This document shows positions 5,861 through 28,769 of a stretch of DNA of 28,933 bases, piece by piece. Position 1 is the stretch's first letter. Each line of letters starts with the position of its first letter. The stretch is from positions 1 through 28,933 of IMG/VR virus record IMGVR_UViG_3300042463_000365, one strand, 5' to 3'. A program made the translations under genes and the position numbers. Under the pieces are notes generated by a model, which did not search any database, was not told where the DNA came from, and saw only the letters and a list, made by a program, of their open reading frames with translations. The stretch comes from a virus.

Positions 5861-6544
5861 ATGAAAGCGCGACTGATTAGCTATAGTAAACCCTCCCGTG
5901 AGATTGCCAATGAAGGCTTATATGATATGCAAGAACTAATTGCATTTTGTGCAAGAGTATCAAATCCTGCAAACCAACTAAACACAGAAACATCCACAAA
6001 ACTGATCAATTACTTGGTCAAGAATAAGCACTGGAGTCCTCTGGAGATGGTGTCTGCATGTGTTGAAGTTGAAACTACCCGCGATATCGCCCGACAGATT
6101 CTACGCCACAGGTCATTCTCTTTTCAGGAGTTTAGCCAACGATATGCTGATCCAACTAAGGACCTAGATTTTGTGTTTCGTGAAGCGAGGCTGCAAGACA
6201 CCAAGAATCGTCAAAATTCAATTGAACTTGATATGAATAATGATAGTCATCGTCAGATTGCATATCAGTGGCAAAATTTACAGCGAGATTTAATTCAAAA
6301 ATCAAAGGAAGTCTATGCTTGGGCAATGGAAAAGGGTATTGCAAAAGAGCAAGCCAGAGCCATTCTACCCGAAGGAAATACCGTGTCACGCATGTACATC
6401 AATGGTACACTGCGTTCCTTCATTCACTACATAGAAGTCCGCTCTGAAAAAGCAACGCAAAAAGAACACAGGGAAATGGCAATTGAAATTGCCAAAGTGA
6501 TCGCTGAGGTATTTCCTTTGGCGCAAGAGTTCGTATCAAAATAA
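5861..6544 (+). CDS. thyX: Flavin-dependent thymidylate synthase ThyX
   Basis: 227 residues, normal for ThyX. The signature RHRx7S is present as RHRSFSFQEFSQRY at residues 82-95. The enzyme methylates dUMP to dTMP using methylene-tetrahydrofolate and NADPH via FAD, leaving tetrahydrofolate rather than dihydrofolate. Supporting segments are KHWSPLEM near 57-63 and the C-terminal SFIHYIEVR, typical of the dUMP-binding end. It lies between primase and ribonucleotide reductase genes, a common phage arrangement for dNTP supply. Confidence 0.95.
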   Translation: MKARLISYSKPSREIANEGLYDMQELIAFCARVSNPANQLNTETSTKLINYLVKNKHWSPLEMVSACVEVETTRDIARQILRHRSFSFQEFSQRYADPTKDLDFVFREARLQDTKNRQNSIELDMNNDSHRQIAYQWQNLQRDLIQKSKEVYAWAMEKGIAKEQARAILPEGNTVSRMYINGTLRSFIHYIEVRSEKATQKEHREMAIEIAKVIAEVFPLAQEFVSK

Positions 6545-14944: not shown

Positions 14945-15311
14945 TGTAGTAGCAGCATGGGTATTACAGGCGTTGGTTTGGAATGAGAAGCGTAAGCCAA
15001 TCTATTGGGTGATAACAGGAAATCACCAAGAATATGTGGAATACATCCGCCATATTACAGACATTCATCCAGAAAGGTTGGAGCAATATGATTATCGGTA
15101 TGTCCGGCATGTTGATATAATCAGAGGTCAAAGAAACATGCGAGGCTCATTCATCGGCACCTGGTATAATAGAGAAGACGCAAGAATAATCTATGGAATC
15201 ATAAGTGCAAGCCACATCGGGTACGCCGAAAACACATACAATCCAGGACTATTCACCGCAAGAAAGGTCCTAGACCGATATGGTAAACCAGTAGGAGCAG
15301 TAGGTGCCTAG
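14931..15311 (+). CDS. Hypothetical protein, first of a tandem paralogue pair
   Basis: 126 residues from ATG 14931, with AGGTGA upstream; a GTG at 14922 is a weaker option. Core: YWVITGNHQEYVEYIRHITD, the segment HPERLEQYDYRYV and GSFIGTWYNREDA. The next gene repeats this order. Pattern (beta strand WVITG, helix, second strand YRYV, strand FIGT) suggests a small Rossmann-like fold, but no family is recognised. Contains a 39-base stretch identical to its neighbour (15144-15182). Confidence 0.6.
   Translation: MLDDDVVAAWVLQALVWNEKRKPIYWVITGNHQEYVEYIRHITDIHPERLEQYDYRYVRHVDIIRGQRNMRGSFIGTWYNREDARIIYGIISASHIGYAENTYNPGLFTARKVLDRYGKPVGAVGA
15144..15182 (+). repeat. 39-base direct repeat, copy 1
   Basis: Identical over 39 bases to 15469-15507, in the paralogous gene. 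The rest of the pair is clearly diverged. The segment encodes GSFIGTWYNREDA and includes ACCTGGTATAATAGAG, the same 16 bases as the -10 end of several early promoters. Confidence 0.9.
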
Positions 15312-15615
15312 AATTAATAAAACACAATATTGGATCATAGCCGGGTGTTGGCGGCAATATGGAGATTATGTCCGTGATATCGCAAAAAATCATCCGGAAA
15401 AATGGGAGCAATATCAATATCGGTACGTAACTGATCCATGTATGCTCCATGGCCTAAAAGAAATCCATGGCTCATTCATCGGCACCTGGTATAATAGAGA
15501 AGACGCATCCGAAATCTATAGAATCATCCGATCCAGTTATTCATTTGAATCTAATGCAACAGTCTTTTCAATGAACAAAGTAAAGCAAATTATTCTGGAG
15601 CACCACAACAAATGA
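15304..15615 (+). CDS. Hypothetical protein, second of the tandem pair
   Basis: 103 residues from GTG 15304, which overlaps the previous stop and has AGGAG about 8 bases upstream; no ATG is suitably placed. YWIIAGCWRQYGDYVRDIAK, HPEKWEQYQYRYV and GSFIGTWYNREDA align with residues of the preceding protein, so the pair arose by duplication. The C-terminal 30 residues differ completely. Function unknown. Confidence 0.6.
   Translation: MPRINKTQYWIIAGCWRQYGDYVRDIAKNHPEKWEQYQYRYVTDPCMLHGLKEIHGSFIGTWYNREDASEIYRIIRSSYSFESNATVFSMNKVKQIILEHHNK
15469..15507 (+). repeat. 39-base direct repeat, copy 2
   Basis: Second copy of the 39-base identity, at the same place in the second paralogue. See 15144-15182. 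Confidence 0.9.
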
Positions 15616-17005: not shown

Positions 17006-17222
17006 CCCACTCCCACCGTCCACCCTGCCTTTTGCTTCGATCTGATACAATTATACCACAGGTGGATCTGGTGTCAAGTCAGTGGAAAGTATGCATAAAT
17101 GCCTGGATTGGTACTACCATACTATCCACGCAATAACCATCAATAGAATCGGATATCCGAAATCCGGGCTCTTGGAACCCGCATGCCTATTGACTTGGAG
17201 AAGACCGTTTTAAAATCAATGA
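17006..17222. other. Convergent intergenic region
   Basis: 217 bases between the ends of + and - genes. No gene is supported. It holds a - strand early-type promoter (17050-17077), a perfect 12-base palindrome TCGGATATCCGA near 17144, and a small CGGG...CCCG inverted repeat. I see no tRNA and no terminator with a clear T-run in either direction. Confidence 0.5.
17050..17077 (-). promoter_or_regulatory. Early-type promoter pointing into the convergent junction
   Basis: On the - strand: TTGACA, 16-base spacer CCAGATCCACCTGTGG, TATAAT, preceded by ACTTTCCACTGAC as in the other copies. Its spacer has CCACCTGTGG instead of the usual inverted repeat. No - strand gene lies downstream; a transcript would be antisense to the SegE-like gene. 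Confidence 0.7.
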
Positions 17223-17660
17223 TTATGAGGCCACTTGAACCTCAACGATAACGAAAGGAACAGGCTTCACATGAACCAGGGCTAACTCATCCAGAAGTTT
17301 ACTCAGTTCCTCGCGATTCTTAGCAATACAATTCGTTACACGATTAACCTGCCTTTTCATGGCACCGGCTCGACCTCTTTGATCATGCATGATAGCAGTT
17401 AGGAGCTCATTTTTATACCACGCCAATCTATGAGTGTTATATTCAATTTGTCTATCTGTAAAATCAATATCATAATCTAAAGTTAGAGCATACATTCGCA
17501 AAAGGTTATCGAGAGCCTTTTCTGCGTTTCTATGTAAAATGAATGTGTGATCAATACCATAATGTTGTTGGGCGCAGTGCGCGGCTCGGGATATCCGATT
17601 TCCACACATCACGGTATCAATGCTATCTCCGGTGTATACAACAGCGTATTTGATTTTCAT
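17223..17660 (-). CDS. Hypothetical early protein
   Basis: 145 residues from ATG 17660; a longer frame exists but would overlap the upstream gene, which ends at 17663. N-terminal beta strand MKIKYAVVYTGD, then CGNRISRAAHCAQQHYGID, and a long basic helical C-terminal half (KRQVNRVTNCIAKNREELSK). No recognised domain. Second gene of the operon started by the promoter at 17905-17932 and last gene before the junction. Confidence 0.6.
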   Translation of the reverse strand: MKIKYAVVYTGDSIDTVMCGNRISRAAHCAQQHYGIDHTFILHRNAEKALDNLLRMYALTLDYDIDFTDRQIEYNTHRLAWYKNELLTAIMHDQRGRAGAMKRQVNRVTNCIAKNREELSKLLDELALVHVKPVPFVIVEVQVAS

Positions 17661-17662
17661 AA

Positions 17663-17878
17663 TTACAGAATATAGGTTTTGGCTGATTTGCTCAACTCGG
17701 CATAAACACATTCACGGACTTCCGTATCCAGCGCCTCAGCATAACGTGAGTCATAGGACAATGCAGTCAACATAGCATCAACTGTAGTCCAGGACAATTT
17801 AGCAGCTTTAGCCGCTAAGGTGATGTTACGGACAGCAGCATCTCCGGCTGGAGTAAACATGGCGTAGGTCTTTTTCAT
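17663..17878 (-). CDS. Small early protein
   Basis: 71 residues from ATG 17878, the first ATG after the promoter. MKKTYAMFTPAGDAAVRNIT followed by Ala-rich helices. The A/G-rich leader GGAAGAAAGCGAG supplies a ribosome site. No family recognised. It is followed two bases later by the 17660 gene, so the two are probably co-translated. Confidence 0.6.
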   Translation of the reverse strand: MKKTYAMFTPAGDAAVRNITLAAKAAKLSWTTVDAMLTALSYDSRYAEALDTEVRECVYAELSKSAKTYIL

Positions 17879-17904
17879 AATCAATTCTCGCTTTCTTCCA
17901 TACA

Positions 17905-17932
17905 ATTATACCAGGATTCCGGTAATTGTCAA
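17905..17932 (-). promoter_or_regulatory. Early promoter, operator type
   Basis: TTGACA, spacer ATTACCGGAATCCTGG (16), TATAAT on the - strand, upstream element ACTTTCCACTGAC. Inverted repeat TACC-GGAATCCT-GGTA spans spacer and -10. Drives 17878 and 17660. Confidence 0.85.
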
Positions 17933-17951
17933 GTCAGTGGAAAGTTCTCTT

Positions 17952-18338
17952 TTACCACAAGGCGTGGTTATCGCGCCATTCCCGTATGTGAGCACCGCGG
18001 TCCCTCATTGAATCGAAGGTTTCAGCCGGTTCCTTATCCAGACGGTCTACAATATATTTGAATTCAGCATAGGATAATTTGAACCATTCGCCTCTGATTA
18101 GTCTCTTGGAGTAATTCTTATGTAAATACAATTCAACGTCATATGGTTCTGGAATTTGAGGTGAGATATATTCTATGCCCAACTGCAACCAGTTTCCGGT
18201 ATTCAAAGTTGACAGGCGTTTGGCTACACCTTTATTGCTTTTGGAAACACCAATTTTGAATGGCCATGTTCCAGTTCCACTAGTCCAACCTTTGTGGGGT
18301 TTGATGGGTCCAATTAAGTATACATGTCCAATGGCCAT
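17952..18338 (-). CDS. GIY-YIG-related protein (T5orf172/MUG113 type)
   Basis: 128 residues. GHVYLIGPIKPHKGW, then WPFKIGVSKSNKGVAKRLST, a helix with NTGNW, and ELYLHKNYSKRLIRGEWFKL match the T5orf172/MUG113 branch of the GIY-YIG nuclease fold (strand VYLIG, strand KIG, Arg in RLSTLNT, Glu in VELYLH). Members occur in many phages, but substrates are mostly unknown. Starts one base after the preceding small gene's stop (TAATATG). Last gene of the operon from the promoter at 18526. Confidence 0.7.
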   Translation of the reverse strand: MAIGHVYLIGPIKPHKGWTSGTGTWPFKIGVSKSNKGVAKRLSTLNTGNWLQLGIEYISPQIPEPYDVELYLHKNYSKRLIRGEWFKLSYAEFKYIVDRLDKEPAETFDSMRDRGAHIREWRDNHALW

Positions 18339-18339
18339 A

Positions 18340-18504
18340 TTACTCTCCGATTACAATGGTATCACCCCAAACATGGATGTCCGAGGCGAAAACTGGGCTT
18401 TGATACTCTTGGTTCATGGCCATCTCAACGCTGGCATCCTGGTCTGGCAATGCTTGCAAAATACGGATCAATTCTGCTACAGTCAATTGGGTTTGCATGG
18501 TCAT
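18340..18504 (-). CDS. Small early protein
   Basis: 54 residues: MTMQTQLTVAELIRILQALP, then DQDASVEMAMNQE and a final strand DTIVIGE. The TVxELIxxLxxLPxDxxV start is typical of a large group of small phage proteins of unknown role. First gene after its promoter, with a leader of about 15 bases (ACGAAAG acts as ribosome site). A second ATG two codons later is an alternative. Confidence 0.6.
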   Translation of the reverse strand: MTMQTQLTVAELIRILQALPDQDASVEMAMNQEYQSPVFASDIHVWGDTIVIGE

Positions 18505-18525
18505 CTTTCGTCTTAGTATGGTTCT

Positions 18526-18553
18526 ATTATAACAGGATTCCAGTAATTGTCAA
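18526..18553 (-). promoter_or_regulatory. Early promoter, degenerate inverted repeat
   Basis: TTGACA, spacer ATTACTGGAATCCTGT (16), TATAAT on the - strand. The usual TACC/GGTA ends are changed to TACT/GTTA, so the presumed operator is weakened. Drives 18504 and 18338. Leader starts AGAACCATAC as in other copies. Confidence 0.8.
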
Positions 18554-18567
18554 GTCAGAAGAAAGTA

Positions 18568-18708
18568 TTACATAATGGCTAGGTGGAGAATCACCGCCAA
18601 TGTATTCAGTGCCAAAGCCACGGCATGGAGTATAATGGAGGGTTTGTTCTCAGATACGGACAAAAAGTATGCACTGGTCACAACAAATAGTAGGTTAATA
18701 TAAATCAT
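18568..18708 (-). CDS. Small two-helix membrane protein
   Basis: 46 residues: MIYINLLFVVTSAYFLSVSE, a short polar turn with ENKPS, then IILHAVALALNTLAVILHLA. Two hydrophobic helices fill the protein. Its ATG overlaps the preceding TGA (GAATGA), which supports coupled translation. Last gene of the long operon from the promoter at 20143. Function unknown. Confidence 0.5.
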   Translation of the reverse strand: MIYINLLFVVTSAYFLSVSENKPSIILHAVALALNTLAVILHLAIM

Positions 18709-18932
18709 TCTTCAACTCCGAAATGTTCTTTAATGATTTCATCGGCAAATAAATCGTGTATGCCTTTACCAGTGGAACACCGTTTGGTAAGTTCCATACA
18801 TTTTTTCACAATCAACTCGGCGAACTTTTCACTATATTGATACACCCACATCCCACTTCGGTCTGAACTTCCGGTATTTTTATCAGCATACCTACCAGCC
18901 TCAAACATTAGTTCTTCAATTCGTTCGTTCAT
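18705..18932 (-). CDS. MNERI-family small early protein (copy 1)
   Basis: 75 residues from ATG 18932; the longer frame lies inside the previous gene. Architecture shared by five proteins here: MNERIEELMFEAG, a variable middle, then EKFAELIVKKCMEL and the end IIKEHFGVEE. The variable middle (YADKNTGSSDRSGMWVYQY) is unique. Probably helical; no known activity. The family is common in early regions of phages of Gram-negative bacteria, usually in several copies. Confidence 0.7.
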   Translation of the reverse strand: MNERIEELMFEAGRYADKNTGSSDRSGMWVYQYSEKFAELIVKKCMELTKRCSTGKGIHDLFADEIIKEHFGVEE

Positions 18933-19177
18933 ACAATCTCCATAATATGCCAAACAAATGACCCCTCGAGACAGGTCCCAATGTAGAACATATTCTCGTC
19001 CAGTTCCCATCCAGTCCCTACAACCTCAAAGGTTCGAGGTTCTATTTGAGCATCAGTGTCTACCAGTGCCCACATACAGAAATCTTTTCCCTGCATATTG
19101 CAATGGAGTATACGGGCACCAACCGGCATTTCTGTGTCGGAGCGACCGGTTACTGTGTATTTGTAAATTGTTTTCAT
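18929..19177 (-). CDS. Conserved small phage protein (DUF7352-like)
   Basis: 82 residues: MKTIYKYTVTGRSDTEMPVG, then ARILHCNMQGKDFCMWALVD, RTFEVVGTGWEL and a final FVWHIMEI strand. This beta-barrel-like order (IYKY, EMPxGAxIL, WALVD, GTG) is the pattern of a widespread phage/prophage family I know as DUF7352. Function unknown. Overlaps both neighbours by four bases. Confidence 0.7.
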   Translation of the reverse strand: MKTIYKYTVTGRSDTEMPVGARILHCNMQGKDFCMWALVDTDAQIEPRTFEVVGTGWELDENMFYIGTCLEGSFVWHIMEIV

Positions 19178-19407
19178 TCTTGGACTCCATAGCGTGTACG
19201 AATGTCGTGAGCGTAACCACCGAGTTCGGGCATGATGTATGAATCTTCGTCCAACATCTTAGCACAATCTTCGGCGATCAATTGGGCGAACTTTTCTCCC
19301 CAGCCACTGACTAATTCAACAGCTTTTTCTCTAGACACTGGCGTAACTGGATCACCGTAGTGACTCTGAAAAGCCTCAATCATAAGTTCTTTAATTCGTT
19401 CGTTCAT
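19174..19407 (-). CDS. MNERI-family small early protein (copy 2)
   Basis: 77 residues: MNERIKELMIEAF, a middle with GDPVTPVSREKAVELVSGWG, then EKFAQLIAEDCAKML and the divergent end RTRYGVQE. The C-terminal half departs from the other copies (RYGVQE in place of HFGVEE). Overlaps both neighbours. Confidence 0.7.
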   Translation of the reverse strand: MNERIKELMIEAFQSHYGDPVTPVSREKAVELVSGWGEKFAQLIAEDCAKMLDEDSYIMPELGGYAHDIRTRYGVQE

Positions 19408-19553
19408 AATATAATCTTGATAATGTAATCGTGCTTGATGTTGGCTTCCAGAAACATTCTCCGTGCTTCTGCTTTATTAGCAGCATCAACCTCAAAGTGT
19501 TCTAGCCCAGGTCTTTGGTAGGACTTATAGACCACAAAGTAATGCTTGGTCAT
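19404..19553 (-). CDS. Small early protein
   Basis: 49 residues from ATG 19553: MTKHYFVVYKSYQRPGLEHF, then EVDAANKAEARRMFLEANIK and an isoleucine-rich end. It looks like a small alpha/beta protein (strand, helix, strand) seen often in phage early regions. ATG directly follows the preceding TGA; its stop overlaps the next ATG. Confidence 0.55.
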   Translation of the reverse strand: MTKHYFVVYKSYQRPGLEHFEVDAANKAEARRMFLEANIKHDYIIKIIL

Positions 19554-19554
19554 G

Positions 19555-19719
19555 TCACTCCGACCAGCTGGAGATATACTCCTCAATGTTTTCAATCTCC
19601 GTACGGAGTGCATCTGGAGCAACCTTCTCCAATAGCTTTAGGATATCCACCAGAGCATCCTCAGGGACCATATCATACTGGTCCACCATATCCATGTATT
19701 GTTGGGCTAGGGTTTTCAT
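19555..19719 (-). CDS. Small acidic helical protein
   Basis: 54 residues: MKTLAQQYMDMVDQYDMVPE, DALVDILKLLEKVAPDA and IENIEEYISSWSE. Acidic and helical, no motif recognised. The ATG overlaps the stop of the previous gene (GGATGA). Member of the eight-gene operon from 20143. Confidence 0.5.
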   Translation of the reverse strand: MKTLAQQYMDMVDQYDMVPEDALVDILKLLEKVAPDALRTEIENIEEYISSWSE

Positions 19720-19922
19720 CCGATTACATCAATTACTTCGTTCTTATCCACCAGAAGAAAACTGGTAGGCTCTGAGCGCCAAGGCAACTGGACAGGTTCG
19801 TCCAGCTCTACTGAGTATTGGACACTGCCACCATACTTCACGCGACTGGAGACAACTCGACCAGTGACGGCTGTGCCAAGGTAGCAAGCCGAGATTTTTT
19901 GTCCATCTAATATCCACGACAT
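19716..19922 (-). CDS. Small conserved-looking beta-rich protein
   Basis: 68 residues: MSWILDGQKISACYLG, then TGRVVSSRVKYGGSVQYSVE and LDEPVQLPWRSEPTSFLLVD. The alternating pattern suggests a small beta barrel of SH3-like size (GRVVxSR...YxVxLDEP...). Ligand unknown. AAGGAAATACC precedes the ATG. Confidence 0.6.
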   Translation of the reverse strand: MSWILDGQKISACYLGTAVTGRVVSSRVKYGGSVQYSVELDEPVQLPWRSEPTSFLLVDKNEVIDVIG

Positions 19923-19935
19923 GGTATTTCCTTAT

Positions 19936-20115
19936 TCAAGCCAGAAGTTTAGCGGCGCGTTCGCAGGCAGTGTCCAATGCAGCCTGAGCATGGCACCATT
20001 CTTCATAGGCGCGGAGAACATGACTCCGATCTTCTTGGTCGCTGTTTTTTGCTTCGTGAAATGCCACCAGCTTTTCGGCGTATTGGAGGGCGAGTTCTTG
20101 GACAGTATATTTCAT
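19936..20115 (-). CDS. Small helical early protein
   Basis: 59 residues: MKYTVQELALQYAEKLVAFH, EAKNSDQEDRSHVLRAYEEW and an Ala-rich end AALDTACERAAKLLA. Likely two or three helices. First gene after the promoter at 20143. The leader AAGACGAAAGATACCA contains the ribosome site. Confidence 0.55.
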   Translation of the reverse strand: MKYTVQELALQYAEKLVAFHEAKNSDQEDRSHVLRAYEEWCHAQAALDTACERAAKLLA

Positions 20116-20142
20116 TGGTATCTTTCGTCTTGGTATGGTTCT

Positions 20143-20170
20143 ATTATACCAGGATTCTGGTAATTGTCAA
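20143..20170 (-). promoter_or_regulatory. Early promoter with perfect inverted repeat
   Basis: TTGACA, spacer ATTACCAGAATCCTGG (16), TATAAT on the - strand. TACCAG-AATC-CTGGTA is a perfect 6+6 inverted repeat joining spacer and -10. Drives eight genes from 20115 to 18568. Confidence 0.9.
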
Positions 20171-20185
20171 GTACATCAAAAGTAC

Positions 20186-20518
20186 TCACTTGGACATATA
20201 CTCAATCCACTCCAATAGAATGGCCTTTGCATCCACGTACGGTACACCAAACTCCCGTTCAATATAGGGTGTAGCTCCCCACATGTTGGTGGCACCAGAA
20301 TCCCTCAGTTGGATTAGGTAGTCGTGGTGCTCTTGTGTGAGGACTTTACCTAGTAGGGTTTTTTCCCTGGGCTCTACTCGTTCCGGAAGACCATCCATGC
20401 ATTCGTCACACCAGTTGGCGCCACTACCCACATAGACACTACCGTCTTCGGTATGGATTTCTGTTACGGTTTGTTCATGGCCGCAATCGGTGCAGCGGTA
20501 CAATGCTTTAACGTTCAT
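20186..20518 (-). CDS. Zinc-ribbon early protein
   Basis: 110 residues. CTDCG (C9, C12) and WCDEC (C37, C40) form a zinc ribbon at the N-terminus. The C-terminal half is helical with LTQEHHDYLIQLRDSGATNM, then IEREFGVPYVDAKAILLEW, a helix-turn-helix-like pattern (helix, EFGV turn, helix). It could be a small nucleic-acid-binding regulator, which is inferred from layout. Last gene of the operon from 21142. Confidence 0.6.
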   Translation of the reverse strand: MNVKALYRCTDCGHEQTVTEIHTEDGSVYVGSGANWCDECMDGLPERVEPREKTLLGKVLTQEHHDYLIQLRDSGATNMWGATPYIEREFGVPYVDAKAILLEWIEYMSK

Positions 20519-20727
20519 TCTTCAACTCCGAAATGTTTTGTAATCTTATTGAAGACCTCAAAGTTACCAGTTGCTTGTCCATCAGTAAGTGCAATCTCGG
20601 CACATTCTGCCACAATCAACTGGGCGAACTTTTCTTTATCAAAATCTTCAATCATTACCTGAGTTGTGGCATTCCAGTATTTGCTTCTAGTAGCCTGTTC
20701 AGCAAGTTCTTTTATTCGTTCACTCAC
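20515..20727 (-). CDS. MNERI-family small early protein (copy 3)
   Basis: 70 residues: MSERIKELAEQATRSKYWNA, TTQVMIEDFDKEKFAQLIVA and the end FNKITKHFGVEE. Carries the full family core (KFAQLIVAECAEI) and the usual terminal HFGVEE. Overlaps neighbours by four bases on both sides. Confidence 0.75.
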   Translation of the reverse strand: MSERIKELAEQATRSKYWNATTQVMIEDFDKEKFAQLIVAECAEIALTDGQATGNFEVFNKITKHFGVEE

Positions 20728-20867
20728 ATACTTCCCTTCAAATCAATCATTGCGACTAGAGCCATAATCGCTATGAATTCAATGGGCTTTTCAATCACAT
20801 TGATACCCAAAAGACCCAGCACTAGGCCAAGGACGGCATACAAAATCAAACTAATCATTAACATCAT
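20724..20867 (-). CDS. Small two-helix membrane protein
   Basis: 47 residues: MMLMISLILYAVLGLVLGLL and FIAIMALVAMIDLKGSM, two hydrophobic helices joined by INVIEKPIE. It has a near-ideal ribosome site, AGGAGAAAATG, and its stop overlaps the next ATG, both strong signs of a real gene. Function unknown. Confidence 0.55.
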   Translation of the reverse strand: MMLMISLILYAVLGLVLGLLGINVIEKPIEFIAIMALVAMIDLKGSM

Positions 20868-20876
20868 TTTCTCCTA

Positions 20877-21113
20877 TTAAGTCTTATAGTGGTTAGCATA
20901 GCGGTTGAACAGACTGGCCAGGTACTCACCTTTTGTGAACCAAAATGCTAAGTCATAGCATTCATCCACCATTTTCAATGCTTTCTTTGGCAACCAAAAG
21001 GTAGCTTTTTCATTATCTGCTACTACAAATTTGATAGCTGCTGGTGACTCTTGGAGCACCTTTACTGTCAGTGCAGCACGGACATTGCGGCCTGACCAAA
21101 TTGTTGTGTACAT
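20877..21113 (-). CDS. Small early protein
   Basis: 78 residues: MYTTIWSGRNVRAALTVKVL, then AAIKFVVADNEKATFWLPKK and a C-terminal LAFWFTKGEYLASLF. Beta-rich N-terminal half, then helical. No family recognised. First gene after the promoter at 21142, with AGAAGGAAAG as ribosome site. Confidence 0.6.
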   Translation of the reverse strand: MYTTIWSGRNVRAALTVKVLQESPAAIKFVVADNEKATFWLPKKALKMVDECYDLAFWFTKGEYLASLFNRYANHYKT

Positions 21114-21141
21114 GTTCTTTCCTTCTCTGGTGTATGGCTCT

Positions 21142-21169
21142 ATTATACCAGGTTTCTGGTAATTGTCAA
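21142..21169 (-). promoter_or_regulatory. Early promoter, operator type
   Basis: TTGACA, spacer ATTACCAGAAACCTGG (16), TATAAT on the - strand, with AGTACTTTAGTCTGAC upstream. Inverted repeat TACCAG-AAAC-CTGGTA is perfect. Drives 21113, 20867, 20727 and 20518. Confidence 0.9.
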
Positions 21170-21175
21170 GTCAGA

Positions 21176-21292
21176 CTAAAGTACTAATTTCACTAGGTGG
21201 TAGATTCCAGGTATGACGGCTAACATCACCCATAAAGATAGGATCAGGAAAATCAAAATGGCCTGTATCAAGGCTAGTATAAAGTCAAACAT
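21176..21292 (-). CDS. Small membrane protein
   Basis: 38 residues from ATG 21292: MFDFILALIQAILIFLILSL followed by WVMLAVIPGIYHLVKLVL, almost wholly hydrophobic. A longer frame to 21397 is possible, but the ATG at 21292 overlaps the stop of the shifted C-terminal frame at 21285-21287, which fits an original gene order. Function unknown. Confidence 0.5.
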   Translation of the reverse strand: MFDFILALIQAILIFLILSLWVMLAVIPGIYHLVKLVL

Positions 21293-21415
21293 GGTTCTGG
21301 GGTGGGGTGGTGTAGAGGGGTTCGATTTCTTTGTCTTCCTCGGGAGTCGGTGAATATCCATAAAGTTTCCAATCACCAATTCGTTTAGCCATACCATCCG
21401 TGCCGTAGTGGAATC
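21285..21415 (-). pseudogene. Out-of-frame C-terminal remnant of the 21416-21796 gene
   Basis: In the frame shifted by the (GGCGT)3 repeat there is a clean continuation: VRFHYGTDGMAKRIGDWKLY, then GYSPTPEEDKEIEPLYTTPP and QNHV before TGA. The EPVAW ... PLYTTPP combination is a familiar C-terminal pattern of phage and prophage proteins. With two repeat copies instead of three, EPVAWR runs directly into VRFHYG. As it stands the segment is not translated from the upstream start. Confidence 0.7.
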
Positions 21416-21796
21416 TCACACGCCACGCCACGCCACAGGCTCCTGCACAGGTGCTGCGGTTTTGAGTCGGTCTATTGCAAGATACGGGTTGTCACCCCAC
21501 TTGCAGCCGAGGGCATCATGCAAATCTAAGCAGACCTGAGCCATCGCATAGGCTTGCGCTACGTTAATCGGCTCTTGCTGTGCTGGCTGTGCTGCGGGTT
21601 CCATCACGCATTCAACGCACGAACAATAGCCCGTTCCACAGTTGGGTGGGCGTTTCTGCACAGGTGCTTCAAGGGCTTGCTTGATGGCGGTGATGGCTTT
21701 ACTCGCCATTGATGTGCCGTGACCTTGCGATGGTAGATAGTCCATGTTCCACTCCAACGCCTCCAGCGCCAGCTTCAATGCTTCTTTGTCATTCAT
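21416..21796 (-). CDS. Frameshifted phage protein of the KEALKLALEALE family
   Basis: 126 residues as read. MNDKEALKLALEALEWNM, AITAIKQALEAP, a Cys cluster CGTGYCSCVEC, Gln/Ala/Pro linkers (PAAQPAQQEP) and a helical segment with ALGCKWGDN. It ends early at PVAWRGV because of a 5-base repeat (21420-21434). The family is widespread in phages and prophages, to my knowledge often betaproteobacterial; no function known. Two sampled 60-base lines here are about 60% G+C by count, against 40% for a neighbouring line, hinting at a different origin. Confidence 0.7.
   Translation of the reverse strand: MNDKEALKLALEALEWNMDYLPSQGHGTSMASKAITAIKQALEAPVQKRPPNCGTGYCSCVECVMEPAAQPAQQEPINVAQAYAMAQVCLDLHDALGCKWGDNPYLAIDRLKTAAPVQEPVAWRGV
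21420..21434 (-). repeat. (GGCGT)3 tandem repeat causing the frameshift
   Basis: Three tandem GGCGT units on the - strand. Removing one unit restores a single frame from MNDKEAL through to PLYTTPPQNHV. Tandem short repeats in coding DNA change copy number by polymerase slippage. Confidence 0.8.
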
Positions 21797-21808
21797 GGTA
21801 GGTTTCCT

Positions 21809-21964
21809 TCAATCAATAAAAACGGGTGTATCAGCCAACACGATAGCCACATCATAGGACTTACGTGCCTTGAACACGGCTGCGGCTTTCAACTGCGCCT
21901 CATATGAGGTGGATGCAGTTACGGTGATAACGCGGTTTTTGTAGAATGCTTGGTAAGTTCTCAT
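21809..21964 (-). CDS. Small conserved phage protein
   Basis: 51 residues: MRTYQAFYKNRVITVTASTS, YEAQLKAAAVFKARKSYDVA and IVLADTPVFID. The YQAFYKxxxITVxAxTSYxAQxKAAxxFKAxKxYxVxVxLA pattern is, from memory, a frequent small protein of phages and prophages. Likely a beta-alpha-beta fold. First gene after the promoter at 21992. Confidence 0.65.
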   Translation of the reverse strand: MRTYQAFYKNRVITVTASTSYEAQLKAAAVFKARKSYDVAIVLADTPVFID

Positions 21965-21991
21965 TGGTGTCTTTCTATCTGGTATGGTTCT

Positions 21992-22019
21992 ATTATACCA
22001 GGTTTCTGGTAATTGTCAA
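21992..22019 (-). promoter_or_regulatory. Early promoter, operator type
   Basis: TTGACA, spacer ATTACCAGAAACCTGG (16), TATAAT on the - strand. Same perfect inverted repeat and AGAACCATACCAGA leader as neighbours. Drives 21964, 21796 and 21292. Confidence 0.9.
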
Positions 22020-22034
22020 GTACAGTAAAAGTAC

Positions 22035-22241
22035 TCAATTATCAAATTCACACAATTGGTGGTGGTACAGGTCCCACTCTTCGCCCACGTTCATCCAGTC
22101 CGCCACTTTCATAGCTTCGTCCTCGGAATCAAACCGTTTCAGGTCTTCACCTGAGCGAATACCTGGGCTAATGGTTGTCCATCGCACCAGACGGAAGTCC
22201 ATAGTCTTGTCATGGAACTCTACAGTGTATACTTTTGTCAT
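22035..22241 (-). CDS. Small early protein
   Basis: 68 residues: MTKVYTVEFHDKTMDFRLVR, then a helical part SEDEAMKVADWMNVGEEW and end YHHQLCEFDN. Strand-rich N-terminus with a helix, no known domain. Overlaps the previous stop by four bases. Confidence 0.55.
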   Translation of the reverse strand: MTKVYTVEFHDKTMDFRLVRWTTISPGIRSGEDLKRFDSEDEAMKVADWMNVGEEWDLYHHQLCEFDN

Positions 22242-22462
22242 ACAAACAGGTCTCCGTACATTTCTTCGTAAGCGGCATCAAAATCCTCACGGATCCACTC
22301 AATGGTATATCCGTTCAGTGCGTAGTTATCAGCCATGGCTTGCAAGCGGCGCAGGGCCTGTTCAGCAGTCAGACCCATGCTTGCCATGATACTCAGATTG
22401 CTCCAGTGAGCAAAGTTATTGCTATCTTTGTGGGCACTGACTTGGACGAATTGTTTGGTCAT
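22238..22462 (-). CDS. Small early protein
   Basis: 74 residues: MTKQFVQVSAHKDSNNFAHW, then MGLTAEQALRRLQAMADNYA and an acidic end AYEEMYGDLFV. The GLTAEQAL-RRL helix and following TIEWI strand resemble other small early proteins, but no function is known. First gene after the promoter at 22488. Confidence 0.55.
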   Translation of the reverse strand: MTKQFVQVSAHKDSNNFAHWSNLSIMASMGLTAEQALRRLQAMADNYALNGYTIEWIREDFDAAYEEMYGDLFV

Positions 22463-22487
22463 TTGGAATCTTTCTGTCTATGGCTCT

Positions 22488-22515
22488 ATTATACCAGGTT
22501 ATAGGTAATTGTCAA
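22488..22515 (-). promoter_or_regulatory. Early promoter, short inverted repeat
   Basis: TTGACA, spacer ATTACCTATAACCTGG (16), TATAAT on the - strand. Only TACC/GGTA of the inverted repeat remains; the inner CAG/CTG pairs are lost. Drives 22462 and 22241. Confidence 0.85.
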
Positions 22516-22530
22516 GTCAGTGAAAAGTAC

Positions 22531-22734
22531 TCAATTTCCTGCATAGATGGAAACATACTCTTCACCTTCGTCTAGGTCAAATGGACCACAATCACCATCT
22601 ACTTCATCGGTAATGAATGCTGAGGACAATGGACCACAATCACCTGAGGCGCCGTGCCGATAGAAAACTTCCTTATCGCCATGACCCTCGGTTTGGAGTT
22701 TTTGCAATTGTTCAATAAATTTATTCAGTTTCAT
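22531..22734 (-). CDS. Conserved small phage protein
   Basis: 67 residues: MKLNKFIEQLQKLQTEGHGD, KEVFYRHGASGDCGPLSSAF, then DEVDGDCGPFDLDEGEEYVS. The GHGDKEVFYRHGASGDCGP pattern and the GPFDLxEGEEYVSIYAGN end are familiar from phage genomes. GDCGP occurs twice, once in each half. Its ribosome site (AGGA) lies in the duplicated end of another gene (22740-22774). Confidence 0.65.
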   Translation of the reverse strand: MKLNKFIEQLQKLQTEGHGDKEVFYRHGASGDCGPLSSAFITDEVDGDCGPFDLDEGEEYVSIYAGN

Positions 22735-22739
22735 AATAT

Positions 22740-22774
22740 CATCCTACGAATTCGTCAATGGTACGGATCAAGTC
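22740..22774 (-). pseudogene. Duplicated 3' end of the 23437-23733 gene
   Basis: These 35 bases match 23438-23472 with one mismatch and encode IRTIDEFVG-stop plus the AGGA ribosome site of the following gene. They join directly to the upstream element of an early promoter (AGTACTTTCCACTGAC), whose -35 half and -10 box are missing. This looks like a deletion joint formed within CTTGA. Confidence 0.8.
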
Positions 22775-22793
22775 AGTGGAAAGTACTCAGTAT

Positions 22794-23171
22794 TTACAAG
22801 TTCAACAATTCACGCTCTTCCGCAGTCAACAATTCATTGACCTTACGCAATGCCTCTGCCTTTACTTCGGCCAGGCGCTTACGTTCAGCAAGTTCCGCTT
22901 CATGGCGATCCAGATCATATTCCAACGATTCTAATTGTTCTTGGCTATCGGGAGAATGTGCGTAAGCCAAAGAGAAATAATCATAACGGTCGTTACGGTT
23001 AGTAAGTTGGAACTTGTTGTTGTTACTTACAGTGAGTTCAAAGTATGCTTTTGTAGCACGTGCCAGAGCAAGCATGAGGCGCTGTGGATATTCATCCACT
23101 TGCTTTGCGAGGTATGTTTCACGCTCTTGGGCGTATCGTGCATTACGTTGTGCTACTGTTTCACGTGCCAT
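22794..23171 (-). CDS. Coiled-coil early protein
   Basis: 125 residues from ATG 23171, with CAGGAG six bases upstream. It is highly charged and helical: ETVAQRNARYAQERETYLAK, then a middle LTVSNNNKFQLTNRNDRYDY, and a long Glu/Lys/Ala coiled coil (LESLEYDLDRHEAELAERKR). May form dimers. No recognised domain. First gene after the promoter at 23205. Confidence 0.6.
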   Translation of the reverse strand: MARETVAQRNARYAQERETYLAKQVDEYPQRLMLALARATKAYFELTVSNNNKFQLTNRNDRYDYFSLAYAHSPDSQEQLESLEYDLDRHEAELAERKRLAEVKAEALRKVNELLTAEERELLNL

Positions 23172-23204
23172 TTCCAACTCCTGTTTCTTTCTATCTAAGT
23201 CTCT

Positions 23205-23232
23205 ATTATACCAGGTTATAGGTAATTGTCAA
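23205..23232 (-). promoter_or_regulatory. Early promoter, short inverted repeat
   Basis: TTGACA, spacer ATTACCTATAACCTGG (16), TATAAT on the - strand, identical spacer to 22488-22515. Drives 23171 and, because the intervening promoter is broken, probably also 22734. Confidence 0.85.
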
Positions 23233-23233
23233 G

Positions 23234-23431
23234 TCAGTCGGAAGTACTCTTTTTATTGGGTGTGAATAGTTCCAACGCCTTAGCTGGATAAATCTGGACT
23301 GAACCCACCTCTGTGAAACTTTCCACAGCATAGCCTTCTGGTGTAAGTTTGGTGCTATAAGTTCCCACAATGGTGCCATGCCACTGTGAGCCAGACACTT
23401 TTCTAACGGTGTCACCTAGTTTGAATTTCAT
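23234..23431 (-). CDS. R67/DfrB-type dihydrofolate reductase
   Basis: 65 residues from ATG 23431, eight bases after AGGA (a second ATG at 23440 overlaps the previous stop). It aligns without gaps, by memory of R67 [31 protein letters not shown] and [12 protein letters not shown] correspond to R67 residues about 31-75. Key positions are kept: Lys32, Trp38, Tyr46, Ser65 and the Gln67-Ile68-Tyr69 active-site strand. R67 is an SH3-like tetramer that reduces dihydrofolate with NADPH and is insensitive to trimethoprim. Here the protein lacks R67's disordered N-terminal 16 residues and has a short Lys/Ser tail. Confidence 0.85.
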
Positions 23432-23436
23432 TTGGA

Positions 23437-23733
23437 TCATCCTACGAATTCGTCAATGGTACGAATCAAGTCCTCAGCATATACGTCCACCACTATCTTG
23501 CGGACTTTCACTGTAGGAACGCCTTTGACCTTACGGACTTGCATAAATGTGATGTTATACAGGTCAGGGCAAGGCTTGTATTGGATATACACCAAACCTT
23601 TGAATGGTGTCATACCAGTTGTTTTAAATTGTAAGCCATCACCCATATCAGTGAGGTCTACTGCACCCCAAGCATACATAGCCCATGGGTCTAGATATCC
23701 AATTTGATCAAGAATAGTCCGAGCGATTTTCAT
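23437..23733 (-). CDS. Conserved early phage protein
   Basis: 98 residues: [38 protein letters not shown], then [20 protein letters not shown] and [19 protein letters not shown]. It resembles a widespread phage/plasmid family (ILQQLGGxxFxAMTGA...GLxFxL...GINxVxIxLxxxDxYxVxF...GVYxDxLxxxF) in strand and motif order. Function unknown. Its stop codon overlaps an ATG, and its last 35 bases are copied at 22740. Confidence 0.65.
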
Positions 23734-23752
23734 GATAACTCCAATGAAAGGA

Positions 23753-23836
23753 TTAACCTAAGGTCTCAACGGAGCCACTAACAGTGCCACCAACCAAGAC
23801 CAACACAACACAAACAACGACTAAAAATTCAAACAT
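23753..23836 (-). CDS. Tiny membrane protein (27 aa)
   Basis: MFEFLVVVCVVLVLVGGTVS, then GSVETLG. One hydrophobic helix. A GGAG ribosome site lies just before the ATG. It fills the gap between 23733 and 23848 neatly, which supports a real gene. Function unknown. Confidence 0.45.
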   Translation of the reverse strand: MFEFLVVVCVVLVLVGGTVSGSVETLG

Positions 23837-23847
23837 AAAAACTCCAA

Positions 23848-24036
23848 TCAAACAAAGTCAAAAGCAAATTGATCACCAACAGGAGAGACAATCACGCCGT
23901 AAGCGGGATTTTCCAAAATCGTTTGGATTTTAGCGGCCTCACGTGGAGTGCATGTCACGAAAAGAGTACCGCTGGTGAATTCAGCATCGGTGGTGACTTT
24001 AGCAACAAGGGAGAGGATTTTTGATTCGAAGGCCAT
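23848..24036 (-). CDS. Small early protein
   Basis: 62 residues: MAFESKILSLVAKVTTDAEF, TSGTLFVTCTPREAAKIQTI and ENPAYGVIVSPVGDQFAFDF. Alpha/beta composition, no domain recognised. First gene after the promoter at 24066, leader with AAGAAAGAC. Confidence 0.55.
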   Translation of the reverse strand: MAFESKILSLVAKVTTDAEFTSGTLFVTCTPREAAKIQTILENPAYGVIVSPVGDQFAFDFV

Positions 24037-24065
24037 GATTTGTCTTTCTTACTGTCTATGGCTCT

Positions 24066-24093
24066 ATTATACCAGGTTTCCGGTAAGTGTCAA
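24066..24093 (-). promoter_or_regulatory. Early promoter, operator type
   Basis: TTGACA, spacer CTTACCGGAAACCTGG (16), TATAAT on the - strand. The upstream AGTACTTT-CTGAC element is displaced here: AATACTTTAGTC sits about 24 bases further up. Drives 24036, 23836, 23733 and the DfrB-like gene. Confidence 0.85.
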
Positions 24094-24135
24094 CCAATAC
24101 CTGACTAAACTTGGTGTAAGACTAAAGTATTACTT

Positions 24136-24741
24136 TTAGTATATCCAAAATCCTAATCGTTCTGCTGAGGGCGATTCGTACCATGAAGAACCTGGTGGTT
24201 GCTCAATGGATTCGTTTTTCCAAACGGGTATTATAGTGTTGCATGAATGGTTGGTGAAGTCGTCATTGTACCTTGCATGGACTTCAATCGGATTACCACC
24301 AACATACTCTACATTGATCCATTCGTATTTTTCTGATAAGTGCTTTAGCGGAAGTGGTATTGGAATGTGCTTATCTATTTTAGTCCATCTGCAAAATCTA
24401 TCAAGCCTATCACTGTTTCTAAACCCTTGTACACAAATGTGTTGTTGACCATAATGATAGTCTACTGAGATATGGTCACCAGTGAAAAACTCACACCAAA
24501 AATAACCATCTGGAATTGCGTTAACATCATTGGGCGTTAGCCATTGCTTTGCTGCACCACGACTCATCATGCGGAGATTGGTTATAGGGCGAACAATGTA
24601 CCAATTAGGGCTATCAACTGGAACACCTGCGGGCGCGGCTTTATATCCAAGTTTCTTGGCTAGGATTAGCTTATCATAAATCCAAAGATCGTCAGCATCT
24701 AATGTATGCCAAACATCTTTGTCATCTATCAGGAAAGTCAA
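24136..24741 (-). CDS. Conserved phage protein of unknown function, possibly ATP-grasp-like
   Basis: 201 residues. Strongly patterned: DLWIYDKLILAKKLGYKAAP, GVPVDSPNWYIVRPITNLRM, PDGYFWCEFFTGDHISVDYH, then YEWINVEYVGGNPIEVHARY and HSCNTIIPVW. From memory this order (DKL...G...WYIVRPI.N...PGYFWCEFF.G.HxSVDY...WxNxExxGGxxIEVHxRxNxDF) is conserved in many phages. The RPI/CEFF/EVH series recalls the substrate loops of ATP-grasp-type enzymes, but I cannot confirm this. Last gene of the long right-hand operon. Confidence 0.6.
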   Translation of the reverse strand: MTFLIDDKDVWHTLDADDLWIYDKLILAKKLGYKAAPAGVPVDSPNWYIVRPITNLRMMSRGAAKQWLTPNDVNAIPDGYFWCEFFTGDHISVDYHYGQQHICVQGFRNSDRLDRFCRWTKIDKHIPIPLPLKHLSEKYEWINVEYVGGNPIEVHARYNDDFTNHSCNTIIPVWKNESIEQPPGSSWYESPSAERLGFWIY

Positions 24742-27883: not shown

Positions 27884-28681
27884 TTACTTACCCATCATCA
27901 AAGCATTGAAGTTGGATGGCACAACGATTGTCTGCACCTTGCCGTTCTTGATACCTTCTGAGATATTCAACATAGCTTGTGCTTGCATGAATGCAATGGA
28001 ACTGCCTGAGTTGTTAGCCAATGCAGCCATACGACGGCTTTCGGCCTCAGCAGTTTTCACTTCCACTTCCTTTTGCTTCAATTCGTTTTTGCTACGAACC
28101 AATGCGTTAGCGGATTCTACCACTGTATCACTTGGCAATACGTTACGGATCATGACCTGGGAGATAGTGATACTACCGTCAAGTTTTTCCTCAGCAAGGT
28201 TTCGCTGAATTTCATCCTTGATATAGTTTTCCATATCCGTGCGGTTATCAGCCATGTCCAATGCTTCATACTTTCGTGCGGCTTTGTAGATGGCATTCCG
28301 TGCGTTTTGCACCACATAGTTATACATCACATATGTGTCACCTTTGAATTCTGCGTGGAACGATTTGTTCTTTGCGGAGTATAGTTCAGCAACGGTTTGT
28401 GGATTGATGTTGTAAACAACCACAGCGTCCAAGTCTTTCATGGTGCTGTTGTCTTTTGCAACGGGTGTCATATTCTCCAGGACTACGTTAACGTCCTTGA
28501 CTGGGAAAGTCAAAATAGTGCCAACGATAGTTTGGTTGAATGATCCAGGCAGCAACTCACCAGACTGCACCTGTTTATCAAAGCCGACACGAACACCGAC
28601 CTCACCAGTTTCAATACGAGTACATGCGGAAGTCAAAGCAACGGCTGCGGCGATAGCGCCAAGTTTCAGGTAACGATTCAT
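27884..28681 (-). CDS. SPFH/prohibitin-type lipoprotein
   Basis: 265 residues from ATG 28681. The N-terminus MNRYLKLGAIAAAVALTSAC has a lipobox ending at Cys20, with Thr at +2, which favours the outer membrane. The SPFH (Band 7) domain follows: ETGEVGVRVGFDKQVQSGEL, then TFPVKDVNVVLENM, DLDAVVVYNINPQTV and EKLDGSITISQVMIRNVLP. An Ala/Glu-rich coiled coil (about 205-235) and a short C-terminal tail end the protein. SPFH proteins assemble into ring scaffolds on membranes. Most bacterial ones use an inner-membrane helix, so lipid anchoring is unusual. Confidence 0.85.
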   Translation of the reverse strand: MNRYLKLGAIAAAVALTSACTRIETGEVGVRVGFDKQVQSGELLPGSFNQTIVGTILTFPVKDVNVVLENMTPVAKDNSTMKDLDAVVVYNINPQTVAELYSAKNKSFHAEFKGDTYVMYNYVVQNARNAIYKAARKYEALDMADNRTDMENYIKDEIQRNLAEEKLDGSITISQVMIRNVLPSDTVVESANALVRSKNELKQKEVEVKTAEAESRRMAALANNSGSSIAFMQAQAMLNISEGIKNGKVQTIVVPSNFNALMMGK

Positions 28682-28682
28682 A

Positions 28683-28769
28683 TTAAAGAACTCCAAAAGA
28701 AAAAAGAACAAAACAAACAAGGAAGCCCAGGATGAAATACAAGGGCCTTAGCAAAAGGTCACTGAACAT
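28683..28769 (-). CDS. Tiny membrane protein (28 aa)
   Basis: MFSDLLLRPLYFILGFLVCF then VLFSFGVL: a single long hydrophobic helix. An ideal AAGGAG site lies seven bases before the ATG, and the gene ends one base before the SPFH start, so it is probably co-translated and may be a partner of that protein. Confidence 0.5.
   Translation of the reverse strand: MFSDLLLRPLYFILGFLVCFVLFSFGVL

What the first reader, a model, noticed from the sequence alone, without database searches (positions are those of the whole stretch)
23234..23431. Phage-encoded R67/DfrB-type dihydrofolate reductase
The protein aligns gap-free with R67 DHFR over about 45 residues and keeps Lys32, Trp38, Tyr46, Ser65 and the VQIY active-site strand. 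DfrB enzymes are best known from trimethoprim-resistance cassettes and their natural reservoir is unclear. A native-looking copy inside a phage early operon, under the phage's own promoter and without any integron sequence, suggests phages as a source. It is odd alongside ThyX, which regenerates tetrahydrofolate directly, so the phage may need DHFR for other folate flux or to boost a weak host enzyme.
Basis: partly seen in the sequence, partly recalled or inferred. Interest (0 to 1): 0.8.

Follow-up and report, generated by a model that had tools for sequence, protein, structure and literature searches.

The report
Optional phage R67-type dihydrofolate reductase gene
A virus of bacteria carries a tiny enzyme gene of the same family as a well-known trimethoprim-resistance enzyme, and its closest viral relatives often sit next to genes that make modified DNA bases, which hints at what this enzyme family may do in nature.

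Summary
The gene is real. On the minus strand (23431..23234) it encodes 65 residues that pass the Pfam R67 DHFR model (78 bits, cut-off 25), align gap-free to R67 over 53 residues, are modelled within 1.0 A of R67, and keep K32, W38, Y46 and VQIY. Phage-borne dfrB is already in print, so this is a new member of a known kind.

Found here: (1) it is an optional 698-base module between 37-base direct repeats, absent from a relative (flanks 91-93% identical) that holds one repeat copy; thyX is in 18 of 18 primase-related records, dfrB in 0 of 18. (2) Its viral relatives evolve under strong purifying selection (median dN/dS 0.03). (3) In 25 of 32 dfrB-bearing viral records folE and/or queD is present, in 21 within 1 kb; the window lacks them. 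(4) One contig fuses DfrB to ThyA. Classical DfrB genes fall in a separate clade with bacterial copies, so a phage source for them is not shown. Activity is inferred, not measured; I favour an R67-type reductase acting on dihydrofolate.

The parts
23234..23431 (-). dfrB-like gene, 65 aa (alternative ATG at 23440, 68 aa)
   Evidence: PF06442 E 3.6e-22; PDB R67 gap-free 3-55; model rmsd 1.0 A to R67 entries over 55 columns
22767..23464 (.). 698-base optional module holding dfrB, a promoter repeat and gene B (edges can slide within the repeat)
   Evidence: exact 698-base gap against the relative G033/L353
22738..22774 (.). 37-base direct repeat, copy 2 (lies before gene C)
   Evidence: the repeat finder family D13, 97% identity
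23436..23472 (.). 37-base direct repeat, copy 1 (3' end and stop of gene A plus the AGGA before dfrB)
   Evidence: the repeat finder family D13; single copy in L353 1138-1174
22794..23177 (-). gene B, up to 127 aa, unknown function, second gene of the module
   Evidence: ORF; no Pfam match over cut-off; among the loci held seen only in window-lineage loci
23205..23232 (-). exact TTGACA-16-TATAAT promoter repeat inside the module, just after dfrB, reading into gene B
24066..24093 (-). exact TTGACA-16-TATAAT promoter repeat, the nearest exact one upstream of dfrB
23848..24036 (-). first listed ORF behind that promoter, 62 aa, unknown
   Evidence: no Pfam or PHROGs match
23437..23733 (-). gene A, 98 aa, unknown; ends 5 bases before dfrB
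   Evidence: PHROG 9437 (unknown function) E 1.4e-4; spacing
22531..22734 (-). gene C, 67 aa, unknown; next gene after the module, directly after gene A in the relative
5861..6544 (+). thyX, flavin-dependent thymidylate synthase
   Evidence: PF02511 E 4.1e-42, TIGR02170 over cut-off

Best explanation
The gene encodes an R67/DfrB-type reductase. One chain folds as a five-stranded SH3-like barrel (predicted). Four chains are inferred to assemble into the R67 tetramer, whose single central pore, lined by four copies of VQIY with K32 near its mouth, holds NADPH and a dihydropterin-ringed substrate, so that hydride passes to the 7,8-dihydropterin. The expected substrate in this phage is host dihydrofolate, giving extra tetrahydrofolate during infection. 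The gene is optional cargo: it came into this phage lineage, or was lost from relatives, as a 698-base module by recombination at a 37-base repeat that carries a stop codon and a ribosome-binding site, in a region of repeated promoters. Its nearest kin are genes of viral contigs in which dfrB often abuts folE or queD, so the gene pool from which the window copy came probably used it for pterin or folate flux. Shown: membership, modelled fold, site conservation, purifying selection in kin, module structure, genomic linkage in kin. Inferred: tetramer, activity, substrate, direction of transfer.
For: PF06442 match; R67 alignment; model (mean pLDDT 90.7) whose 7 PDB hits at E<=0.001 are all R67 entries, incl. 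the NADP/dihydrofolate complex 2rk1. Among 125 distinct viral relatives K32 is kept in 124, W38, Y46 and V66 in 125, Q67 in 123, I68 in 120, Y69 in 122. 39 distinct viral genes: mean pS 0.74, pN 0.07; median dN/dS 0.03 in the 282 of 741 pairs for which it was computed. Published relatives with the same site act as DHFR or give trimethoprim resistance; for the Vibrio phage protein DfrB-H4 resistance was seen, but no activity was detected in lysate. A DfrB-ThyA fusion on one viral contig (L056, ATG 9998 to stop 10996, one open frame; PF06442 E 2.5e-18 and PF00303 E 1.2e-107), an R67-type counterpart of protozoan DHFR-TS. Module. Kin linkage.
Against: No activity was measured. ThyX does not make dihydrofolate (established knowledge), so the phage's own thymidylate synthesis gives DfrB no substrate. 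ThyA-type genes are in only 4 of 32 and 3 of 50 dfrB-bearing records, and ThyX in 2 of 32 plus the window, so a general tie to thymidylate synthesis is weak (the records are fragments). The phage protein DfrB-H3 was not visibly expressed and gave no resistance. Interface residues differ from R67: W45 is T, H62 is E (E in 107 of 125 viral relatives). Conservation counts lean upward because relatives were fetched with patterns that include part of the site. Many viral copies lie in longer open frames of unknown function. In the fusion record one search reports a TGA within its profile match; it lies at L056 9968-9970, upstream of the fusion's ATG. Only one such contig was found.
Confidence: 0.65

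Rival explanations
1. Dihydropterin reductase of 7-deazaguanine DNA modification: in the folE/queD-bearing phages DfrB acts beside FolE, QueD and QueE on unconjugated pterins, for instance returning autoxidised 6-carboxy-dihydropterin to the tetrahydro form that QueE uses. The window copy would be an orphan of that system.
For: folE in 23 and queD in 23 of 32 dfrB-bearing records, either in 25, within 1 kb and on the same strand in 21; 10 of 10 such records of at least 60 kb within 1 kb, against a mean of 0.55 and 0 of 20,000 random placements. Three placements recur: after queD, after folE, and after a large unannotated gene. PHROGs call the neighbours QueD-like, QueE-like and GTP cyclohydrolase. 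Around a second type of queD 15 of 80 loci have dfrB, all 15 within 400 b of folE (14 of the 15 contigs had already come up in the dfrB scans). Control records of the window lineage: folE 0 of 18, queD 0 of 18.
Against: Most queD loci do without it: of the 80 closest to L014's queD only the seed itself has dfrB, and 65 of 80 lack it around the second type. FolE is in 0 of 50 records with more distant dfrB genes and in none of the window-lineage records. The records share ancestry, so the odds against random placement overstate the case. A published simulation found that the bare dihydropterin core binds R67 poorly without the rest of folate (PMC9220120, passages read). A nucleotidyltransferase/sugar-isomerase gene is as common a neighbour (15 of 30) as folE. 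The large unannotated gene was not confirmed as a transglycosylase.
Confidence: 0.15
2. Non-catalytic SH3-like module: in phages the domain mainly binds a partner or nucleotide and helps proteins oligomerise; DHFR activity is a by-product of its pore.
For: DfrB domains lie in open frames that extend up to 515 codons upstream and 290 downstream (frames, not proven proteins), mostly without other Pfam matches, one with a DUF3850/ASCH domain. The 2023 study argues that the catalytic activity emerged from a non-catalytic fold (abstract start).
Against: K32, Q67, I68, Y69 and W38 are kept almost without exception and selection is strong; a mere scaffold need not keep the catalytic strand. The window gene is stand-alone. 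A DfrB-ThyA fusion exists.
Confidence: 0.1
3. Drug-resistance cargo: a trimethoprim-resistance gene picked up from a bacterial integron.
For: R67-like sequence; integron dfrB genes exist at 67-76% identity (40 of 98 plasmid records listed).
Against: No integron integrase match; none of the four neighbouring ORFs tested has a Pfam match over cut-off; tree neighbours are viral; below NCBI's resistance-model cut-off; dfrB GC 0.44 against 0.43 for the window.
Confidence: 0.03

Closest known systems
R67 DHFR / DfrB1 (PF06442)
   Same: 53 residues gap-free, K32, W38, Y46, VQIY, fold within 1.0 A by model
   Different: 65 aa without the N-terminal tail of about 20 residues; W45 to T, H62 to E; phage gene run instead of integron cassette
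Phage DfrB homologues DfrB-H3 (Pseudomonas phage) and DfrB-H4 (Vibrio phage), PMC9835603 (passages, and parts 2 and 3 of 8, read)
   Same: Same SH3 domain and active site, phage-encoded
   Different: Those are longer multidomain proteins; the window gene is a stand-alone domain in an optional module
DfrB2-like ORFs on four freshwater viral contigs, PMC7265639 (passages read)
   Same: Viral DfrB at 67.31% identity to DfrB2; the window protein is 69.2% to DfrB2
   Different: Authors left them out of functional analysis
Environmental DfrB12-21, PMC9774602 (passages read)
   Same: Family members away from antibiotic use
   Different: Assigned to bacteria; words beginning with phage or virus count 0 in its main text
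7-deazaguanine phage genes (folE, queD, queE), PMC6884629 (search listing only)
   Same: The gene set that flanks dfrB in many of the window gene's viral kin
   Different: 'dihydrofolate reductase' counts 0 in that paper; the window has neither folE nor queD

Membership tests
R67 dihydrofolate reductase family (PF06442, DfrB) | Sequence match over the curated Pfam cut-off | tested here: met
   78.4 bits against 25
R67 dihydrofolate reductase family (PF06442, DfrB) | Active-site VQIY strand, K32, and the tetramer-interface W38 | tested here: met
   All present; roles of these residues from PMC9774602 and PMC9835603
R67 dihydrofolate reductase family (PF06442, DfrB) | SH3-like barrel | tested here: met
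   AlphaFold2 model, mean pLDDT 90.7, rmsd 1.0 A to R67
R67 dihydrofolate reductase family (PF06442, DfrB) | Homotetramer with one shared pore | not testable with these tools
   The tool predicts single chains; W38 kept, H62 and W45 not
R67 dihydrofolate reductase family (PF06442, DfrB) | NADPH-dependent dihydrofolate reduction insensitive to trimethoprim | not testable with these tools
   No assay possible
Named DfrB resistance proteins (NCBIfam NF000331) | Score over 137 bits | tested here: not met
   88.6 bits; so a homologue, not a catalogued resistance allele
Named DfrB resistance proteins (NCBIfam NF000331) | Integron cassette context | tested here: not met
   No IntI1 match in the window; flanked by small ORFs of unknown function and promoter repeats; attC sites not scored
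7-deazaguanine pathway gene cluster | folE and queD near the gene | tested here: not met
   Neither in the window or its lineage records; folE and/or queD present in 25 of 32 viral kin records

The most novel reading that the evidence does not exclude
Phage DfrB proteins are native dihydropterin reductases that serve the FolE-QueD-QueE route to 7-deazaguanine-modified phage DNA (or the folate pool that it drains). This would be the first natural function of the DfrB family, phages would be a major natural reservoir of it, and clinical dfrB would be one small offshoot of the family.
Probability: 0.2. Interest if true: 0.85.

Novelty: new member of a known kind. Interest (0 to 1): 0.6.

Why it matters
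DfrB enzymes are studied as drug-resistance proteins without a known natural role: the 2023 study says that the native function and origin of its homologues are unknown. The linkage of many viral relatives to folE/queD and the DfrB-ThyA fusion point to two concrete, testable native roles. The presence/absence module in closely related phages shows that the gene comes and goes as a unit.

Tried and rejected
Phage as source of clinical dfrB: tested by tree; classical DfrB genes fall with bacterial copies, 14 of those 23 from Burkholderiales by record title. Some bacterial copies are themselves in integrons: IntI1 matches at 99-100% in L167 and L188 and 61% in L192, 3 of 32 loci. By eye, 5 of the 9 bacterial loci printed (L170, L174, L176, L178, L184) have no obvious phage neighbours and L163 (a Polynucleobacter MAG contig) looks phage-like; these labels were not tested by profile. 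General tie to thymidylate synthesis: weak. FolA-type DHFR alongside: 0 of 51 records.

DfrB-ThyA fusion in cultured Rhizobium phages (RHEph10, N1_10): the in-frame stretch before ThyA there is a different SH3-like sequence (LHIYS) with no PF06442 match in the one tested, L349, so I do not count these as DfrB fusions. Only L056 is counted; it is one metagenomic contig and no reads were checked.

Large gene before dfrB in L007, L010, L016, L025, L049: looked like a tRNA/DNA-guanine transglycosylase by eye (DSGGFQ), but Pfam and PHROGs and PDB sequences gave nothing and the model was poor (mean pLDDT 46.8); left unnamed. QueE: no Pfam match, PHROGs QueE-like E 6.4e-51.

Rows dropped before counts: and its sister calls used 32 of the 36 dfrB records of at least 20 kb (L026, L031, L038, L051 left out as near-duplicates; 22 shorter ones not given; near-duplicates such as L019/L023 and L046/L048/L050 remain) and 18 records, 22-214 kb, picked by hand from the 80 (primase identity 42-95%). 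Searches used 30 of 58 loci. Searches used 50 hand-picked records of at least 25 kb reached through L250-L348; others of that size (L344-L348 among them) were not given. dN/dS used 52 of 58 loci (L053-L058 left out), 39 distinct, and 282 of 741 pairs for the ratio. One search left out L002, L057, L058, L273, L278, L296, L301, L347, the repeats L193-L249, and L148, L150, L152, L160; its 'viral_7dz' label was set by hand. One search counts distinct aligned rows. Several loci are cut short by contig ends, so dfrB may be out of view there.

Full report
The observation. The finding's coordinates hold a 65-codon ORF on the minus strand. It passes the Pfam R67 DHFR model at 78 bits against a cut-off of 25, matches a PHROG of unknown function (31682) and aligns gap-free with R67 over residues 3-55. 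NCBI's model for catalogued DfrB resistance proteins also matches, below its cut-off (88.6 of 137 bits). The predicted structure (mean pLDDT 90.7) superposes on R67 at 1.0 A, and all seven PDB hits at E<=0.001 are R67 entries.

Is it under selection? In 39 distinct viral genes of the nearest clade synonymous sites are close to saturation (mean pS 0.74) while amino acids hardly change (pN 0.07); where the ratio was computed (282 of 741 pairs) its median is 0.03 and its maximum 0.14. Over 125 distinct viral relatives K32 is kept in 124, W38 in 125, Y46 in 125, Q67 in 123 and Y69 in 122; E stands in place of H62 in 107. The retrieval patterns favoured parts of these motifs, so the counts lean upward; K32 lay outside the patterns.

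Where it sits. The minus-strand end of the window is a run of small genes with nine exact copies of a TTGACA-16-TATAAT promoter (10 matches in the window with at most one mismatch, against 0.21 expected), most of them inside a longer repeat (7 copies of 80 bases, 8 of 47). dfrB is the third listed ORF behind the copy at 24093, 5 bases after gene A. The record is a 28,933-base virus fragment. A relative (G033) matches window 21816-22774 (93%) and 23436-24137 (91%) as one continuous stretch, overlapping in the repeat: exactly 698 bases with dfrB, a promoter repeat and gene B are missing, and a single copy of the 37-base repeat stands there. Elsewhere the two records are 72-94% identical in the pieces that align. 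The repeat carries gene A's stop and the AGGA that precedes dfrB. So dfrB is an optional module in this lineage. Gain or loss cannot be told from one comparison, but of 18 records with a related primase (G033 among them; six over 150 kb) none has dfrB, while all 18 have thyX; gain is the simpler reading. The two near-identical records G001 and G002 share the module.

Who else has it. 26 of 50,697 phage records, 98 of 72,556 plasmid records, 58 IMG/VR loci with the window protein as query, 262 with an alignment (80 kept), 76 with a distant alignment, and 32 loci in the genome collection (one peptide pattern only, so not comparable as a rate). On a tree of 199 rows and only 57 columns the window falls in a clade of 86 rows (SH-aLRT 96): 78 IMG/VR rows, 2 phage isolates, 4 bacterial rows, one plasmid row and the window. 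DfrB1, 2, 3, 4, 6, 10 and a DfrB9-like gene fall in another clade (96) with 23 bacterial rows and 2 viral ones. The plasmid row of the phage-rich clade is an unnumbered gene in or beside class 1 integrons of Pseudomonas plasmids (70-76% to the window), the only hint here of a phage-to-integron transfer.

What surrounds its kin. In 30 loci the commonest neighbours within 5 kb are QueD-like (17 of 30), FolE-like (15), a nucleotidyltransferase/sugar-isomerase gene (15) and QueE-like (13) genes; Pfam confirms FolE and QueD and PHROGs FolE, QueD and QueE, on one representative each. In 32 dfrB-bearing records folE is in 23 and queD in 23; either is in 25 and within 1 kb of dfrB in 21, on the same strand in every case; in all 10 such records of at least 60 kb dfrB is within 1 kb, against a mean of 0.55 for random placement. 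The placements differ (after queD, after folE, or after a large unnamed gene). Against this: of the 80 loci nearest to one queD only the seed has dfrB; around a second type of queD 15 of 80 do, all within 400 b of folE, but 14 of these 15 contigs had already been found by dfrB itself; folE is in 0 of 50 records with more distant dfrB genes; the window lineage has neither gene. On a queD tree the dfrB label needs three changes on the best tree, of which well-supported branches force only one. The pathway therefore does not need dfrB, but in these phages dfrB, when present, mostly sits beside it.

How it works. The chemistry of R67, hydride from NADPH to a 7,8-dihydropterin ring, fits dihydrofolate and could fit the unconjugated dihydropterins that FolE makes and QueD handles (established pathway knowledge); a published simulation found, however, that the bare dihydropterin core is held poorly by R67 (PMC9220120, passages read). 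A viral contig with DfrB fused directly to ThyA fits dihydrofolate. The folE/queD neighbourhoods fit pterin or folate flux. For the window phage, without folE/queD in its fragment and with ThyX, host dihydrofolate is the likeliest substrate. Published work shows that such proteins, incl. one from a Vibrio phage, can give trimethoprim resistance in E. coli, while a Pseudomonas phage one was not visibly expressed and gave none (PMC9835603, parts 2 and 3 of 8 read).

What is known. Phage dfrB is in print: four freshwater viral contigs (PMC7265639), a wastewater phage bin (PMC10580818), eight candidates among 1,961 dfr genes of lytic phages (PMC12466917; passages read in each), and the two tested homologues (PMC9835603). 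Searches for dfrB with 7-deazaguanine found one paper, unrelated on reading its passages; dfrB with GTP cyclohydrolase and phage found none; a search for DfrB-thymidylate synthase fusions showed no dfrB in the 10 papers listed of 221. The library holds open-licence PubMed Central papers only.

Verdict. The gene is a genuine phage R67-type DHFR homologue, a new member of a known kind. The linkage of its kin to folE/queD, the DfrB-ThyA fusion and the clean 698-base module are the parts for which I found no report in the searches above.

Noticed in passing
L056 9998-10996: Single ORF joining a DfrB domain to a ThyA domain on a 71-kb viral contig; an R67-type counterpart of bifunctional DHFR-TS. 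One contig, no reads checked.
   Followed up: partly
window 17050-24093, minus strand: Nine exact TTGACA-16-TATAAT promoters, most within a longer repeat, each before small unknown genes; reminiscent of mobile promoter cassettes of T4-type phages (recalled).
   Followed up: partly
window 14922-15311 and 15304-15615: Two adjacent ORFs that match one and the same stretch of the relative L352 (12463-12753), i.e. a likely tandem duplication in the window.
   Followed up: no
L151 5001-5192, L152 4001-4174, L160 3001-3174: Unnumbered DfrB-like gene in or beside class 1 integrons of Pseudomonas plasmids, 70-76% to the phage protein; no gene listed there in two of the three records opened (L151, L160), though the plasmid gene tables are incomplete.
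   Followed up: partly
L349 3983-4153 and L350 3983-4153: In cultured Rhizobium phages RHEph10 and N1_10 an SH3-like stretch (LHIYS in place of VQIYP) runs in frame into the annotated ThyA; no PF06442 match in L349. Possibly a distant relative of DfrB.
   Followed up: partly
L270 510-1193: DfrB domain in one open frame with a DUF3850/ASCH domain in a viral contig.
   Followed up: no
L025 8256-10001 and kin in L007, L010, L016, L036, L046, L049: Large unannotated phage gene, directly before dfrB in five of these seven loci; relatives at 32% in jumbo Pseudomonas phages such as PA5oct; DSGGFQ motif resembles tRNA/DNA-guanine transglycosylases (by eye, unconfirmed).
   Followed up: partly
window 27884-28720, minus strand: ORF that looks like an SPFH/prohibitin-family protein by eye; a prohibitin-family gene is also annotated in Rhizobium phage N1_10.
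   Followed up: no
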